Of a DNA stretch of 64,000 nt, positions 3,261-31,177 are shown one piece after another. The DNA lies in IMG/VR virus record IMGVR_UViG_3300025423_000009, positions 53,948-117,947 of that record; one strand, 5' to 3'. The stretch is from a virus. The position numbers and the translations under genes were made by a program. The notes beneath the pieces were generated by a model. That model was not told where the DNA came from, did not search any database, and saw nothing but the letters and a program-made list of their open reading frames with translations. Each line of letters starts with the position of its first letter. The stretch's first letter is position 1.

Positions 3261-3412
3261 GTATGTTGTGATTTATCTATGACGATGGATTCAGACATGC
3301 ATCGATCACAGTAGCAGTTGCCGTACTCATCTACACGCATCTGAAAGACGTCGTGTAGGTCGTGACAGCACTGGCACTCGATCAGTCCGTATGTCTGATC
3401 ATCTTCGTCCAT
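3257..3412 (-). CDS. 51-residue mini zinc-ribbon protein
   Basis: MDEDDQTYGLIECQCCHDLH... with CxCC then CYCDRC about 16 residues later, giving two cysteine knuckles as in a small zinc ribbon; acidic N-terminus. Its stop overlaps the next start as ATGA. A TATGAT hexamer lies 6 nt before the ATG, the same spacing as the -10 boxes at 22958 and 25311. Function unknown; a small transcription-modifying protein is one possibility. Confidence 0.55.
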   Translation of the reverse strand: MDEDDQTYGLIECQCCHDLHDVFQMRVDEYGNCYCDRCMSESIVIDKSQHT

Positions 3413-3457
3413 TGCCAGATCATATTACCATGAAAGGTTCAGAAGTACACGGCGAAA

Positions 3458-4450
3458 TTACGACAGAATTCGATCGACTCGAATCATCACTTGCTTGACG
3501 GCCATCCACATGTCGAGGTAAGTATAGGTTGCCAATCGTCCCAGGAAGATTGTCTTCCTCTCCGCATCAGCCAGCTTCTTGTATTCCATATAGACCTTCA
3601 GGCCTTCTCCGAATGGGATTGGATAGAACGGAACGTCTTCATTTCCGCAAGTCTGAGGATACTCCTCGGTGATGACAGTCAATCCTTCATGATTTGCAGT
3701 GAAGTAACCGTGATCGTACTTTCGAGTGTAGTCGTTCGTTCTATTGTTCTCGTTCTGAATGCAAAACGGCATGCGCTCACTCGTTACTTTATGAACGAAT
3801 CTGAGAGAACGATAAGGAAGGACACCGAATCGAAAGTTGAAGTACTCGTCGACCTTTCCAGTGTAGACGATCAGGTCTGTCGAGTGCTTCTTCCATTCGT
3901 CTGAGGCGCATCCGAGCTCTACAGGAATGCCTTCGAGCATGGCTTCGAACATTTTCGTGTATCCGTTTCGGGGAATGCACTGATACTTCTGGCCTTCGAA
4001 CCAGGTGGGATCGTCACAATCCTTGGTCTTCGGGATGCGATTCGTGATGCTTGCTGGGATTTGATCGAACGGAACTCCCCATTGCTTTTCGGAGTACTCG
4101 CGAAACATATACTCAATGATCTCTTCCTGAGACAGCTCGCGACCAATCTCGGCGACGGTCTTTCGAGAATATGGAAGCGATACTAGCCCAAGGCGAGTGT
4201 TTCCCTTCGGCTGAAGCTTAAATGGAGTCCACTCTGTGAAACGGGATAGGAATTCAAACACTCGCTCATCGTCCGTGTGAAAGACGTGAGGGCCATAGTT
4301 GTGAACCGTCACTCCACATACATTGGAATCATAGCAGTTACCGCCGATGTGCTTGCGCGAGTCGAAAATGCGGCACTCATGTCCAGCATCGGTCAGGAGT
4401 CGTGCGGCCGTGATACCAGAGAGGCCGCATCCGACGACGTTAACTTTCAT
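3458..4450 (-). CDS. glf: UDP-galactopyranose mutase
   Basis: FAD-dependent enzyme converting UDP-galactopyranose to UDP-galactofuranose. 330 residues, slightly short of bacterial Glf (about 370-390), with the FAD-binding GCGLSGITAARLL at the N-terminus, IGGNCYD, GPHVFHTDDERV, EYSEKQWGVP, PRNGYTKMFEAML, YTGKVDEYFNF, LPYRSLRF and C-terminal GRLATYTYLDM. It is the last gene of the overlapping glycan cluster (4-bp overlap with the methyltransferase upstream), so it probably supplies the donor for a galactofuranosyl step by one of the neighbouring transferases. A phage-borne glf is unusual. Confidence 0.95.
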   Translation of the reverse strand: MKVNVVGCGLSGITAARLLTDAGHECRIFDSRKHIGGNCYDSNVCGVTVHNYGPHVFHTDDERVFEFLSRFTEWTPFKLQPKGNTRLGLVSLPYSRKTVAEIGRELSQEEIIEYMFREYSEKQWGVPFDQIPASITNRIPKTKDCDDPTWFEGQKYQCIPRNGYTKMFEAMLEGIPVELGCASDEWKKHSTDLIVYTGKVDEYFNFRFGVLPYRSLRFVHKVTSERMPFCIQNENNRTNDYTRKYDHGYFTANHEGLTVITEEYPQTCGNEDVPFYPIPFGEGLKVYMEYKKLADAERKTIFLGRLATYTYLDMWMAVKQVMIRVDRILS

Positions 4451-5100
4451 AGCTTTTCAAATTCAGGCAGACGTATGGTCTTCGACAGGATGTCGAGGAG
4501 ATGGTTTCGTTTCTCAAATGTAGCCCGCCAATCTTTGAAGTTCTGCTGAGGAGAAAATTGCTTTTTCACTTGCACGAACGTCATTCCCCATGATTCCGGA
4601 TAATGTTTCGACTCGACAAATTCAGTCTTTTGATCCAGACTCGAGATGCCGAAGAACGCTTTGACCGCTTCTTCTGGCCTTTCCCAGACTATGCCTCCGT
4701 ACATATCGTGCTTGTCTTTCGGCCATGCGGTGTCATGGAATACGACATAGCCACCTTCCCTGATGTGAGGGAACCAGAAGAATAGCTCACAAAGAACCTG
4801 CTCTTTGATGTGGCACGTGTCAATGAAGAGCAGGTCGATGGATCCTTTGTTCCAGTGTTTGCCGATCGTAACTGAGTCTCCGAGTATGAATGCATATCGT
4901 TCATGATTCGTCAGATAAGATGGAACCTGAGCAGAGTCAATGTCGACTCCGTGCACTCTATTATTTCGAGCAGAAGCATCGCGAATCATCATCATCGACG
5001 ACTCTCCGCTTCTAACGCCTAGATCCACAAACATTCTGTCGGATCCAAGCGAATCGACGGTTTGTGCTAGAATCTCTTGATTTGGTCCTAGATCGTTCAT
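4447..5100 (-). CDS. class I SAM-dependent methyltransferase (Methyltransf_24 type)
   Basis: 217 residues with a Rossmann SAM fold: MFVDLGVRSGESSMMM (motif I), VHGVDID (acidic end of strand 2), FILGDSV, then DLLFIDTCHIKEQVLCEL and GGYVVFHDTAWPKD. This pattern is that of small-molecule or glycan methyltransferases found in O-antigen and rhamnosyl/cephalosporin hydroxylase-like clusters. In this operon the likely substrate is a sugar residue of the glycan. ATGA-type overlaps join it to both neighbours (4447-4450 and 5097-5100). Confidence 0.75.
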   Translation of the reverse strand: MNDLGPNQEILAQTVDSLGSDRMFVDLGVRSGESSMMMIRDASARNNRVHGVDIDSAQVPSYLTNHERYAFILGDSVTIGKHWNKGSIDLLFIDTCHIKEQVLCELFFWFPHIREGGYVVFHDTAWPKDKHDMYGGIVWERPEEAVKAFFGISSLDQKTEFVESKHYPESWGMTFVQVKKQFSPQQNFKDWRATFEKRNHLLDILSKTIRLPEFEKL

Positions 5101-5981
5101 AATAAGTATTCCTTGATTTGCATGTCCAAGTCAGAACATTGATGTTTAAGAATGTTTTTACTATTAGCAAATTCGTCTATAATCGTCTCATATGAAGTCA
5201 GACATCGTCGAATCACTTCACCTATCATTCGGTGATCGCCGAGTTTATACATGTCTGGAACCGTTACGTCTTCACTAAAAGCCGCTGAACCTTTACGATT
5301 TGTGATAACACAGTTACCGAAAAGCAAAGCTTCACGAGGGATTCGATCCTTTCCAGGATGATTCCCAAAGTCTATATAAATCTTGCTCTTGCACAGGAGA
5401 TCGATGACCTGTTCTCGATTCAGTCCTGAGATCGGTCTGAAGTCGATGTTCGGATTCTCCGTCATGATCTGCATCGTCACTTCGTACCCCTTGGCCGGAT
5501 TATAGCATACGAAGTCTTGCTTCTCTGATAGAGGAATGTCTTGAATCGTATTGGCACCAAAGATGTAATCGTTCAGCATGTGAACATTCTTAGCTCCATT
5601 GCGAGTGACGTAGTCGTAAGCGTACCGCGACTGACAGAAGTGAGTAATTGAGGTGTCGTGAAAGTCCTGAAACTTAGAATGATTGTTGTCAACGCTTAGC
5701 CACCAGATAGCCCGTGATATCGATTTGAATGAAGGAAGCATCGCGGTCCACACTTCAGGAACGATTAGTAGACTTTCAGCTTCGTCTGGAACAGAGAATC
5801 CATACTCTGAAAACTTGTAGTGAGCATAGATGTTTAGGACCGGATTCGAGCAATGACGATCAAAGATCGGTATAGCTTTACCTCCAAGTCGATTGATGCC
5901 GTCGATCAACTGATACAATGATTCGATCCCTCCGGCCTGATACTGAGCCGGAGTCATCACATAAATTGCTTTGAATCTCAT
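5097..5981 (-). CDS. glycosyltransferase, GT-B fold (family 4-like)
   Basis: 294 residues. The N-terminus has YVMTPAQYQAGGIESLYQLIDGINRLGG, like the acceptor-side G-G-x-E loop of GT-B enzymes. The C-terminal half has KGYEVTMQIM, LCKSKIYIDFGNHPGKDRIPREALLFG and NCVITNRKGSAAF, the nucleotide-sugar binding region with the Glu of the E-x7-E-type motif reduced to PREALLFG. Donor and acceptor cannot be read from sequence. Overlaps both neighbours by 4 bp; sits mid-cluster between a methyltransferase and a GT2. Confidence 0.75.
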   Translation of the reverse strand: MRFKAIYVMTPAQYQAGGIESLYQLIDGINRLGGKAIPIFDRHCSNPVLNIYAHYKFSEYGFSVPDEAESLLIVPEVWTAMLPSFKSISRAIWWLSVDNNHSKFQDFHDTSITHFCQSRYAYDYVTRNGAKNVHMLNDYIFGANTIQDIPLSEKQDFVCYNPAKGYEVTMQIMTENPNIDFRPISGLNREQVIDLLCKSKIYIDFGNHPGKDRIPREALLFGNCVITNRKGSAAFSEDVTVPDMYKLGDHRMIGEVIRRCLTSYETIIDEFANSKNILKHQCSDLDMQIKEYLL

Positions 5982-6679
5982 GTGCGCACGTACTTTCTTC
6001 TTACATATTCAAGTTCAGATTGCTTCTTCGCATCGCTAACCAAAGACGAGCTTATCTGATTCGAATGCTCGCGATTTGCCACCGTGATCTGATTGCAGAT
6101 CGCTGGAAGCCCATGCTTATCATACAGCTGCTTATAGTAGTCGACATCCATCAGCCATATCAAATTCTCATCGAATCGCAGGACGTTTTCATTCTTGAAC
6201 ATAATGACACTCGGCGAGCTGATAGTATTTGTGCCATATTGAATCTCATCATGATAGAATGGAAAGTTCGGTCGTTCCAGCCTGACACCGTCCGGAGACT
6301 GGCATGAAGCCGTTGCCAACCAGTAGTTTTGACTTCCCGCGAAATAGAACATCATTGCTTCAAGACTTCGATCGGAAGTTAGGAAGTCATCTTGAAAGAG
6401 TGGCTTTATCACCTTTCCACATGCGTGATGAATCGCATTGTTGGTATTGTGAGAAGAGTTACCTCGATTCATCGCTTTAACATATCGAATGAGTAAACGA
6501 TCATTCCATCGTTCGCATAGTCGATTGATCCCATCGTCGATGCTCTGATCGGACACGATCACTTCGAAAGACTTGAATGTCTGACGAGTTAGTATTGAAA
6601 ATGAATGTTCAAGGTAAGCGACGCCTTGACCGGCCATTTCATAAGTTGGAATGCATATCGATACGATCGGATCGTTCAT
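5978..6679 (-). CDS. glycosyltransferase family 2
   Basis: 233 residues with a GT-A fold: PIVSICIPTYEMAGQGVAYL, TFKSFEVIVSDQSIDDG, then VIKPLFQDDFLT, where QDD stands at the DXD metal-binding position, and LIWLMDVDYY as the catalytic Asp region. Short (families are commonly 250-330), so probably soluble and dependent on partner enzymes. ATGA overlaps with both neighbours indicate a single translationally coupled operon. Confidence 0.8.
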   Translation of the reverse strand: MNDPIVSICIPTYEMAGQGVAYLEHSFSILTRQTFKSFEVIVSDQSIDDGINRLCERWNDRLLIRYVKAMNRGNSSHNTNNAIHHACGKVIKPLFQDDFLTSDRSLEAMMFYFAGSQNYWLATASCQSPDGVRLERPNFPFYHDEIQYGTNTISSPSVIMFKNENVLRFDENLIWLMDVDYYKQLYDKHGLPAICNQITVANREHSNQISSSLVSDAKKQSELEYVRRKYVRT

Positions 6680-7506
6680 AGCTTGGGTAGATTTAGATTC
6701 TCAAGTATTTCACTCAGACGATAGAAATAGTCACCCCAGTAGAGAGCCCTCCGGCAGTTATCTTCGATTGCCTGACTCCTCTTATGATAGTCTTCTTCCG
6801 TTAGACCATTGACGATTTGAATGAGTTCGTTCTCGTCATTGAACGTGATGTACCCATCTGGATTGAAGAAGTCTGATAGATTTGGACATCCCCAGTATAT
6901 GGGAACGGTCTTGGTCAGGAAGCTGTCAATCACTTTCTCCGTAAAGTAGTTCTTATTCCTCGAGTTTTCGACCGCGATATGGAACATGCTTTTCCAGCAT
7001 ACTACTTTGTCTTGAGGTTCGCATTGAAAGATCCAGCTGTTTGGAGTTGTCACTGAAGATCGAGAGTTGAAGATGCTGTGTCTAAGCCGATGACCCTCGA
7101 TGGCATTCTTGACACCGCAAAGAAATGAAGTTTCAAACTTCTTTTCTTTGATGCTGATATTCTGATATGTCCGCTTGTTGTCCCAGATGAAAGACGTACC
7201 AAAGGGAAACATCATGGAGTTTGGACACTTTGACAGTATTGAATCTCCCCAAGTCAAAATCAAATTAAAAGCTCGATGATTTGTGATCGCCCAGTCGTGT
7301 AGACCAAACAATTGATTCGGTTCCTGTATGACGAGTATGTTACATGCGCTAAGTTTCAGCTGATCTGTATTCGGAATAAAGTCGGTGAATACGGTAACGT
7401 TCCTATCGGAGAAGTCGACTTTTTTGCTCGGAAGAATGAAGTCTTCTCCAGTCAGAAGAGTCTTCTCATAAAGAGAAGGTGGTATGAAGGTCGAGAAGAA
7501 TTTCAT
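6676..7506 (-). CDS. GT10-type (alpha-1,3/4-fucosyltransferase-like) glycosyltransferase
   Basis: The diagnostic C-terminal GT10 block is clear: FHIAVENSRNKNYFTEKV, SFLTKTVPIYWGCPNLSDFF, GYITF. In GT10 this region binds GDP-fucose. An upstream in-frame Met extends the frame to 7572, but the start at 7506 (MKFFSTFIPPSLYEK) is preferred because it overlaps the preceding stop as ATGA, like every junction in this cluster; it gives 276 residues. No GDP-fucose biosynthesis gene is visible, so the donor would come from the host or from elsewhere in the genome. Confidence 0.8.
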   Translation of the reverse strand: MKFFSTFIPPSLYEKTLLTGEDFILPSKKVDFSDRNVTVFTDFIPNTDQLKLSACNILVIQEPNQLFGLHDWAITNHRAFNLILTWGDSILSKCPNSMMFPFGTSFIWDNKRTYQNISIKEKKFETSFLCGVKNAIEGHRLRHSIFNSRSSVTTPNSWIFQCEPQDKVVCWKSMFHIAVENSRNKNYFTEKVIDSFLTKTVPIYWGCPNLSDFFNPDGYITFNDENELIQIVNGLTEEDYHKRSQAIEDNCRRALYWGDYFYRLSEILENLNLPKL

Positions 7507-29431: not shown

Positions 29432-29439
29432 TATTTATG
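29432..29439 (-). promoter_or_regulatory. late promoter box, 5 nt before the Sm-like gene
   Basis: CATAAATA, then CTTTC and the ATG at 29426; the box overlaps the 3' end of the uvsW C-terminal gene. Confidence 0.6.
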
Positions 29440-30355
29440 AGATCGGCACTTCATGCACCTCAAAGTCAAATTTCTCTTTCGTATAGATCTTGGCGCGCTC
29501 GATGCCGTGAGTCAGCGTGTAGTTCTTCTGGCCCTTTCTCGAGAGATCGTCGGCGATGTCGTATACGGTCGTTGAACGTTCATCCTTGGTCTTTCTGAGA
29601 CCACGGCCGATCGACTGAAGGACTCGCACCTGTGACTTGGTCGGAGAAGCAAAGACGATGTTGTGCAAATTCTTGATGTTGATTCCGGTCGAGAATGTAC
29701 CAAACGAGGCGATGATGACGGAGCCTTCCTCCTTCTCCACCAGGCCGCGGATCCGTTCACGCTCGTCGGCATCTACCTCTCCGGAGACGAAGTAGACTTT
29801 TCGCTTGGTGTCCTTCAGCTTCTTCTTGACGGCCTCGAAGAGAGGCTCTCCATGCTTCTCGACAAACTGATACAGAATCAGACTATTGCCCTTGAGATCC
29901 GCGACCAGGTTCGTGATGAAGCGATTGCGTGGCTCATATGACGTCAGAAAGTCGAGCTCGTCCTGATAATCGAGGGAATCGTGCTCCTTGCGAATTGCCT
30001 CGGGATACTTCAGCACGAGCATGTGAATCTTCAACTGAGCCAGAACATCCGCGTCGATGAGCTCATGTGTTGTCGTCACCTGATAGGTCGGACCGAAGCA
30101 TCCTTCGAGCACCAGCTTATTGACCTTGGCATCCTCACCTCCCGGAAGCGTACCGGTCGTTCCGATGCGGAACCAAGCGTTCTTGAGCCAGCTCATGATC
30201 TTGGTCAGTGAAACGGCCTTGAACAGATGTGCCTCATCGCCAAAGACACCACCGAACTGCTCGAACCACTTGGGCCCCATGGTAACGGCCGACTGCCAGG
30301 TCGTGATGATCACCGGTGGATCTACTTCTACTTTTTCAATCTTTCGAATTTTCAT
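29435..30355 (-). CDS. uvsW-C: UvsW helicase, C-terminal half (motifs II-VI)
   Basis: 306 residues: PPVIITTWQSAVTMGPKWFEQFGGVFGDEAHLF (motif II DEAH), GTTGTLPGGED (motif III), then helicase domain 2 with KVYFVSGEVDADERERI, IASFGTFSTGINIKNLHNIVFA and QSIGRGLRKTKDE (motif VI). UvsW unwinds branched DNA and R-loops and promotes the switch from origin- to recombination-driven replication. The ATP-binding half is a separate gene ending 63 bp upstream, in the same frame. The first 10 residues (MKIRKIEKVE) resemble the start of a split-intein C fragment. SD-like AGGTAGAG precedes the start. Confidence 0.9.
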   Translation of the reverse strand: MKIRKIEKVEVDPPVIITTWQSAVTMGPKWFEQFGGVFGDEAHLFKAVSLTKIMSWLKNAWFRIGTTGTLPGGEDAKVNKLVLEGCFGPTYQVTTTHELIDADVLAQLKIHMLVLKYPEAIRKEHDSLDYQDELDFLTSYEPRNRFITNLVADLKGNSLILYQFVEKHGEPLFEAVKKKLKDTKRKVYFVSGEVDADERERIRGLVEKEEGSVIIASFGTFSTGINIKNLHNIVFASPTKSQVRVLQSIGRGLRKTKDERSTTVYDIADDLSRKGQKNYTLTHGIERAKIYTKEKFDFEVHEVPIS

Positions 30356-30418
30356 AGAATACTCTACCTAATTTCCAGATCGAAACATCAATTGTTTCAG
30401 GTTTCATAAGTTTTGAAA

Positions 30419-31177
30419 TTATATCAAATCATCTTTTAACGTAAGGTCTTTCGCTTTCTTCTCACCAAAACGTGTTGATACTATATCATTCGGTGATAGT
30501 ATTCTAATTGAACCATCTTCCAAAAAAACCTTTACTTTTTCTTTTTTAGGATCTTTATCTTCTCCACCCATCAAAATGCTTATTGAAGAGTCAGCGTCGA
30601 AAGATGCATCTTCAGATGAATAATTTGAAAAATCATTTTGCATTTGAAGAACTAAACTTCGGGTAGGAACGATGACGATTGCCTTCTTCGAAGAACCTTT
30701 GAGATGATTCAGATACCATCGTAGAAGCTGATAGATGATCAGAGACTTACCAGAACCGGTCGGGGAAACCAGAAGGATCTTCTGAAGCTTGATCGCACGA
30801 TCTATGGCATCTTTCTGGTAATCCCTTAGCTCGAGCGGCTTATCGTCCGCCCCGGTGGCCGCATAAAGGCCTTCAGACGCTTCGGATTCAGCTTCTGAGA
30901 GGTCGGGAAGCCACAGCCCTGGTGCCAGTTCAAGTTCGTGTTTCCGTGAGTCCGCGTACTTCTGAAGGTGATGGAGCAGACCGGCCGGAAGAGTCTGATT
31001 ACGAAGATTGAACAAATGTATACGCCCATCCCATTGCCGACGCTTGAAGGCCGGAGAGAACTGATATCCGGCCGCAAAGAACGAGAAGAACTCAGATAGC
31101 TCCTGAAGGACTCCGGAATCCTCACAGGTCACGCGAAGGTGTGCCTGATCGATCGAATTGACGTGTATGATGGCCAT
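30419..31177 (-). CDS. uvsW-N: UvsW helicase, N-terminal half (motifs I, Ia) with an extra tail
   Basis: 252 residues. N-terminal UvsW accessory domain (HVNSIDQAHLRVTCEDSGVLQELSEFFSFFAAGYQFSP...KRRQWDGRIHLFN), Q motif LRDYQKDAIDRA, Walker A SPTGSGKS (138-145) and VIVPTRSL. The match to T4 UvsW ends near MGGEDKDPKKEK (about 214). The last 38 residues (VFLEDGSIRILSPNDIVSTR...KDLTLKDDLI) are not UvsW; they resemble the end of a split-intein N fragment. The tail is AT-rich. Both halves are needed for an active helicase. Confidence 0.88.
   Translation of the reverse strand: MAIIHVNSIDQAHLRVTCEDSGVLQELSEFFSFFAAGYQFSPAFKRRQWDGRIHLFNLRNQTLPAGLLHHLQKYADSRKHELELAPGLWLPDLSEAESEASEGLYAATGADDKPLELRDYQKDAIDRAIKLQKILLVSPTGSGKSLIIYQLLRWYLNHLKGSSKKAIVIVPTRSLVLQMQNDFSNYSSEDASFDADSSISILMGGEDKDPKKEKVKVFLEDGSIRILSPNDIVSTRFGEKKAKDLTLKDDLI

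What the first reader, a model, noticed from the sequence alone, without database searches (positions are those of the whole stretch)
29435..31177. UvsW helicase split in two with remnants that look like a decayed split intein
The N-terminal half ends with 38 residues foreign to UvsW (VFLEDGSIRILSPNDIVSTR then ending KDLTLKDDLI), and the C-terminal half opens MKIRKIEKVE. These match in style and position the end of an intein N fragment (x-LEDGxxI...G...L..x-D-x-L) and the start of an intein C fragment (M-x-x-K-I-x-K-I-E), as in the gp41-1 type split inteins of fractured phage genes. The splicing residues (Cys1, the block B His, terminal HN) are missing. The halves are in the same frame, 63 bp apart with three stops between, in an AT-rich tract (about 30340-30660). 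This may be a fractured gene that lost splicing yet kept a two-piece helicase, with the tails perhaps serving as docking parts.
Basis: partly seen in the sequence, partly recalled or inferred. Interest (0 to 1): 0.85.

Follow-up and report, generated by a model that had tools for sequence, protein, structure and literature searches.

The report
Phage helicase gene split, intein-like remnants
In one lineage of a T4-like phage the gene for the repair helicase UvsW has been broken in two by a small imported DNA patch, whose extra ends look like leftovers of a split intein that can no longer splice; it may be an enzyme that now works in two pieces, but it could also simply be broken.

Summary
uvsW is two same-frame ORFs (30419-31177 and 29435-30355, minus strand), and together they hold all of UvsW. 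Near-identical phages (L005, L006) carry an intact uvsW. The only large difference is a 339-bp AT-rich tract (30323-30661) in place of 114 bp. The tract begins as diverged UvsW sequence, then adds a 39-residue tail (stop), a 63-bp gap and a 12-residue head.

Standard profile libraries find no Hint domain. Targeted tests do point to one. The tail aligns to the last part of N-inteins (hhalign P 72%, E 3.5e-5; about 1 in 1000 shuffles). The head is the best of 785 ORF starts against a C-intein profile. Neither matches UvsW. All splicing residues are gone, so splicing is not expected.

The best reading is that an allele swap brought in a decayed "fractured gene", leaving a two-chain helicase. Aeromonas phage Aeh1 NrdA-a/NrdA-b is the working precedent. 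Function is unproven: the split contigs are clones, so selection cannot be measured, and a dead gene remains a serious rival. No phage with a live uvsW intein was found.

The parts
30419..31177 (-). uvsW N-terminal half, 252 aa (UvsW_N domain, Walker A, motif Ia, then tail)
29435..30355 (-). uvsW C-terminal half, 306 aa (head, motif Ib TTWQS, DEAH, Helicase_C)
30323..30661 (-). 339-nt AT-rich replacement tract; 114 nt in intact relatives L005/L006
30539..30661 (-). diverged UvsW-homologous part of the tract (RSLVLQMQNDF...GGEDKDPKKE)
   Evidence: UvsW HMM alignment runs to KKE; 1 of 5000 shuffles of its last 20 residues does as well
30422..30538 (-). 39-residue C-terminal tail (KVKVFLEDG...KDDLI), N-intein (Hint) like
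   Evidence: hhalign E 3.5e-5, P 72%; HMM and shuffles; 2nd of 833 ORF ends
30320..30355 (-). 12-residue head MKIRKIEKVEVD of the C half, C-intein-start like
   Evidence: best of 785 ORF starts, 4 of 10000 shuffles; 12 of 5000 with C-extein attached
30336..30407 (-). 23-codon ORF in another frame between the halves (MKPETIDVSIWKLGRVFYENSKD), overlapping the C-half start by 20 nt; origin unknown
   Evidence: sequence and coordinates; no PHROG match
30362..30369 (-). possible ribosome-binding site AGGTAGAG before the C half
   Evidence: read from sequence; inference

Best explanation
A recombination event in a T4-like phage swapped 114 bp of an intact uvsW for 339 bp from an AT-rich relative. 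The imported piece is the middle of a 'fractured' uvsW: a stretch of donor UvsW, the split-site end of an N-intein, a short gap, and the start of a C-intein. The first and last parts of the intein, with every splicing residue, are absent. Two polypeptides are therefore made and not spliced. Because the break lies in a variable loop between two strands of the first RecA-like domain, and no UvsW residues are lost, the two chains could fold together into a non-covalent helicase, with the retained intein strands as possible docking pieces. Shown: the split, the replacement, the completeness of UvsW, the absence of splicing residues. Supported statistically: intein origin of tail and head. Inferred: the donor's architecture, the deletions, two-chain assembly and docking.
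For: Intact sister alleles with about 98-99% identical flanks and one in-frame replacement. UvsW homology runs to the residue before the tail and resumes just after the head. The tail aligns to the last half of N-inteins (E 3.5e-5, P 72%; about 1 in 1000 shuffles, stable to leaving out any seed). The head is the best of 785 ORF starts against a C-intein profile. Codon-position composition of the tail (purines at position 1, 10% G at position 2, A/T 79% at position 3) looks like AT-rich coding DNA. AlphaFold2 of the read-through chain folds most of UvsW on both sides with block pLDDT mostly 80-95 and places the insert outside as low-confidence strands at 212-234 and 270-276; the closest solved structure is T4 UvsW 2oca. 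Precedents of split phage enzymes that work: Aeh1 NrdA and split gene 43 (PMC2988022; PMC3267527).
Against: Pfam, NCBIfam and PHROGs do not report a Hint domain. The block B histidine is aspartate. No phage with a live intein at this place was found, so the donor is hypothetical. The split site is a variable loop, not the conserved motif where inteins usually sit, which requires extra deletions. The split contigs are clones, so there is no evidence of selection to keep the halves. A nearly invariant His (53 of 54 relatives) is Ser in the imported segment.
Confidence: 0.5

Rival explanations
1. The split uvsW is a dead gene: a recent recombination accident broke it and the phage lives without UvsW, or shares the product of co-infecting intact relatives. 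The intein-like ends are debris with no role.
For: Intact sisters exist; the split allele is known only from contigs at least 99.98% identical to each other; a nearly invariant His is lost in the tract. From general knowledge, T4 uvsW mutants are viable.
Against: Both reading frames are open over their whole length, all UvsW motifs are present, the replacement kept frame, the C half has its own start and a possible ribosome site, and the allele is present in several datasets.
Confidence: 0.35
2. The gene was split by a different mobile element, such as a free-standing homing endonuclease as in Aeh1 nrdA, and the tail and head are ordinary read-through sequence created at its insertion and later loss; the intein likeness is chance.
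For: Aeh1 nrdA-A/mobE/nrdA-B has the same layout with unrelated tails. The contig carries several homing-endonuclease-like genes, including one of the SegE family, and T4 SegE targets uvsW (PMC2988022). A 23-codon ORF lies in the gap and overlaps the C-half start.
Against: Tail and head each match the expected part of a split intein at the expected end, about 1 in 1000 each; Aeh1 tails do not score.
Confidence: 0.25
3. The break is healed at RNA or protein level: an intron, recoding, or a still active split intein with a missing piece elsewhere.
For: Gene integrity on either side.
Against: No Rfam intron match even at E 10; three stops between the halves; no intein pieces elsewhere in the contig at meaningful scores; no Cys1, block B His or terminal His-Asn.
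Confidence: 0.03
4. Assembly chimera.
For: Sharp composition change.
Against: Five other contigs from five IMG dataset numbers carry the same junctions.
Confidence: 0.01

Closest known systems
Aeromonas phage Aeh1 NrdA-a/NrdA-b (gene in pieces made by mobE)
   Same: A T4-type core enzyme split into two ORFs with extra tails at the break; the second half starts by overlapping the preceding ORF; the working enzyme is (alpha-a + alpha-b)2 beta2 (PMC3267527).
   Different: Aeh1 still has the endonuclease between the halves and its tails do not score as intein; here no endonuclease remains, the enzyme is UvsW, and activity is unknown.
Fractured genes with split inteins (Dassa et al. 2009, cited in PMC3653736); comparators here: Shigella phage ESh36 gp41 and Campylobacter phage F379 NrdA
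   Same: Gene broken inside, N half ending in N-intein sequence, C half beginning with C-intein sequence.
   Different: Those carry Cys1, the block B His and an Asn before a Cys/Ser, and an ORF between the halves; here the catalytic parts are gone and only 63 bp remain.
Split DNA polymerase 43A/43B of Aeromonas phages 25 and 44RR, and T4 topoisomerase 39/60
   Same: T4-type replication enzymes made from two chains after a gene break (PMC2988022).
   Different: No intein remnants are described for them.
T4 UvsW (PDB 2oca, 1rif)
   Same: Fold and sequence of the helicase.
   Different: Single chain.

Membership tests
UvsW helicase | UvsW_N domain and SF2 helicase core with motifs I, Ia, Ib, II-VI | tested here: met
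   split over two ORFs
Active split intein | Cys/Ser at intein position 1 with block A | tested here: not met
   UvsW homology runs directly into the middle of the Hint-like stretch
Active split intein | Block B TxxH histidine | tested here: not met
   SPND: Asp in place of His
Active split intein | Block F/G ending in His-Asn followed by Cys/Ser/Thr | tested here: not met
   Head runs straight into PPVIITTWQS
Hint-domain ancestry of tail and head | Profile similarity to intein N and C fragments | tested here: inconclusive
   Positive in targeted tests, negative in Pfam, NCBIfam and PHROGs
Fractured gene (split intein plus endonuclease ORF) | Endonuclease ORF between the halves | tested here: not met
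   63-bp gap with only a 23-codon ORF of unknown origin
Gene in pieces of the Aeh1 NrdA kind | Both halves together contain the complete enzyme, with extra tails at the break | tested here: met
Gene in pieces of the Aeh1 NrdA kind | The two chains assemble into an active enzyme and need the tails | not testable with these tools
   needs protein work

The most novel reading that the evidence does not exclude
A split-intein gene that gave up splicing: the parts of the intein that hold its two halves together were kept as a clasp while the catalytic parts were deleted, turning a trans-spliced phage helicase into a stable two-chain enzyme.
Probability: 0.22. Interest if true: 0.75.

Novelty: new variant of a known kind. 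Interest (0 to 1): 0.5.

Why it matters
Split inteins hold their fragments together tightly before they splice. If a phage kept the holding part and lost the splicing part, it would show how an enzyme can pass from a spliced to a permanently two-chain form, and would give a second, different example beside Aeh1 NrdA of mobile-element debris used for assembly. It also gives a natural pair of nearly identical phages, one with whole and one with split UvsW, for a direct test.

Tried and rejected
Group I intron or other structured RNA in the tract: no Rfam match of that kind at E 10. Tail or head as ordinary UvsW: head 867 of 5000 and tail 2289 of 5000 shuffles score as well. An N-intein starting further upstream at SFDADSSISIL (looks like block A): rejected because that stretch is UvsW. 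Searching for a live uvsW intein before (S/T)TWQ or TWQ in IMG/VR: only unrelated matches. Tail in GTDB genomes, phages, plasmids: none; the short Erwinia AH04 match lies at the start of a hypothetical CDS and is taken as chance. Structure of the 87-residue junction alone: pLDDT 48, meaningless matches. Promoter and RNA fold scans of the gap: nothing beyond chance.

Full report
What is there. On the minus strand uvsW is two open frames, 31177-30419 (252 aa) and 30355-29435 (306 aa), between uvsY (31637-31188) and a small ORF at 29426-28989. The N half carries UvsW_N and the start of the helicase core, the C half the rest. The window is part of a 117,947-bp IMG/VR virus record.

Comparison with near-identical phages. 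IMG/VR contigs L005 and L006 are 98-99% identical over the flanks and encode an intact UvsW (505 aa in L006). Alignment shows one replacement: 114 nt in the intact genes, 339 nt at window 30323-30661. Both lengths are a multiple of three. Five further contigs have the split form and are clones of the window (one mismatch in one of them), so the arrangement is real but gives no information on selection. Outside the tract the N half has no codon difference from L006 and the C half has four synonymous and one non-synonymous.

Anatomy of the tract. It begins with a diverged UvsW stretch (RSLVLQMQNDFSNYSSEDASFDADSSISILMGGEDKDPKKE) that a UvsW profile aligns to its last residues; shuffling its final 20 residues reaches the score once in 5000. 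Then comes KVKVFLEDGSIRILSPNDIVSTRFGEKKAKDLTLKDDLI and a stop, a 63-bp gap with three in-frame stops counting the TAA of the N half, and MKIRKIEKVEVD, after which the resident UvsW resumes at PPVIITTWQS. So no UvsW residue is missing; the tail and head are additions in a loop that varies in length and sequence among relatives. The tract is about 30% GC against about 50% around it, and the tail's codon positions look like AT-rich coding DNA. In the gap another frame holds a 23-codon ORF that overlaps the C-half start, a layout also seen for the endonuclease ORF in Aeh1 and for the ORF inside ESh36 gp41.

Is it intein? The curated libraries say nothing. The tail scores 6.8 bits over model positions 45-84 of 89; 23 of 20000 shuffles do as well, the result is stable to leaving out any seed, and it ranks second among 833 real ORF ends. 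hhalign gives P 71.7%, E 3.5e-5 over columns 45-84. The head scores 10.4 bits, the best among 785 ORF starts, with the next at 5.1; 4 of 10000 shuffles do as well. Against UvsW profiles the tail and head are at chance. The two tests are separate and both fit the expected end of the expected half. I put the intein origin at about 70%.

Can it splice? Not by any known route. Cys1 and block A are absent, the block B His is Asp, and there is no terminal His-Asn. No other intein piece in the record scores meaningfully. An intron is not supported.

Structure. AlphaFold2 on the chain read through its stops, with 54 UvsW relatives, folds the UvsW parts with block pLDDT mostly 80-95 and leaves the insert as weak strands (212-220, 223-228, 231-234, 270-276; pLDDT about 30-54) outside it. 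The best solved structure is T4 UvsW. The insert alone gives no usable model. This says that a break here is compatible with the fold; it says nothing on docking.

How it arose and what it does. The simplest course is a double-strand break or ordinary exchange in uvsW repaired from an AT-rich phage whose uvsW was fractured by a split intein and already partly deleted, or deleted in the exchange. Homing activity on uvsW is known: T4 SegE targets it (PMC2988022), and this record carries a SegE-family gene far from uvsW. No donor was found. Function could be kept by assembly of two chains, as for Aeh1 NrdA and split gene 43 (PMC2988022, PMC3267527; that the Aeh1 tails are needed for assembly is from my knowledge of Crona et al. 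2011, which is not held), or lost. I give the combined reading 0.5, the dead-gene rival 0.35.

Verdict. The docking idea is untested.

Noticed in passing
L149:2479-2976 (contig G000:C1:22479-22976, - strand): SegE-family GIY-YIG endonuclease (PF19835, E 1e-35); T4 SegE targets uvsW, yet here the gene is far from uvsW.
   Followed up: partly
L149:5056-5658 (- strand): NUMOD3 (probable HNH) endonuclease between the large (3400-5052) and a probable small (5738-6727) ribonucleotide reductase gene, the place mobE has in T4.
   Followed up: no
L150:1439-2113, L148:7225-7941, L149:1869-2501: Further homing-endonuclease-like ORFs (NUMOD3; no Pfam match but similar by eye to the first; weak GIY-YIG), so the phage is rich in such elements.
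   Followed up: no
window 30336-30407: 23-codon ORF MKPETIDVSIWKLGRVFYENSKD in the gap, possibly the end of a lost ORF that lay between the halves; no family match.
   Followed up: partly
PHROGs phrog_9690 (306 aa), phrog_16259 (330 aa), phrog_17901 (109 aa): UvsW families the size of gene pieces, suggesting other phage records with uvsW split at this and other places.
   Followed up: no
L151 (Shigella phage ESh36), L154 (Campylobacter phage F379): Apparently complete fractured gp41 and nrdA with split inteins and an ORF in between; in a Tequatrovirus for ESh36.
   Followed up: partly
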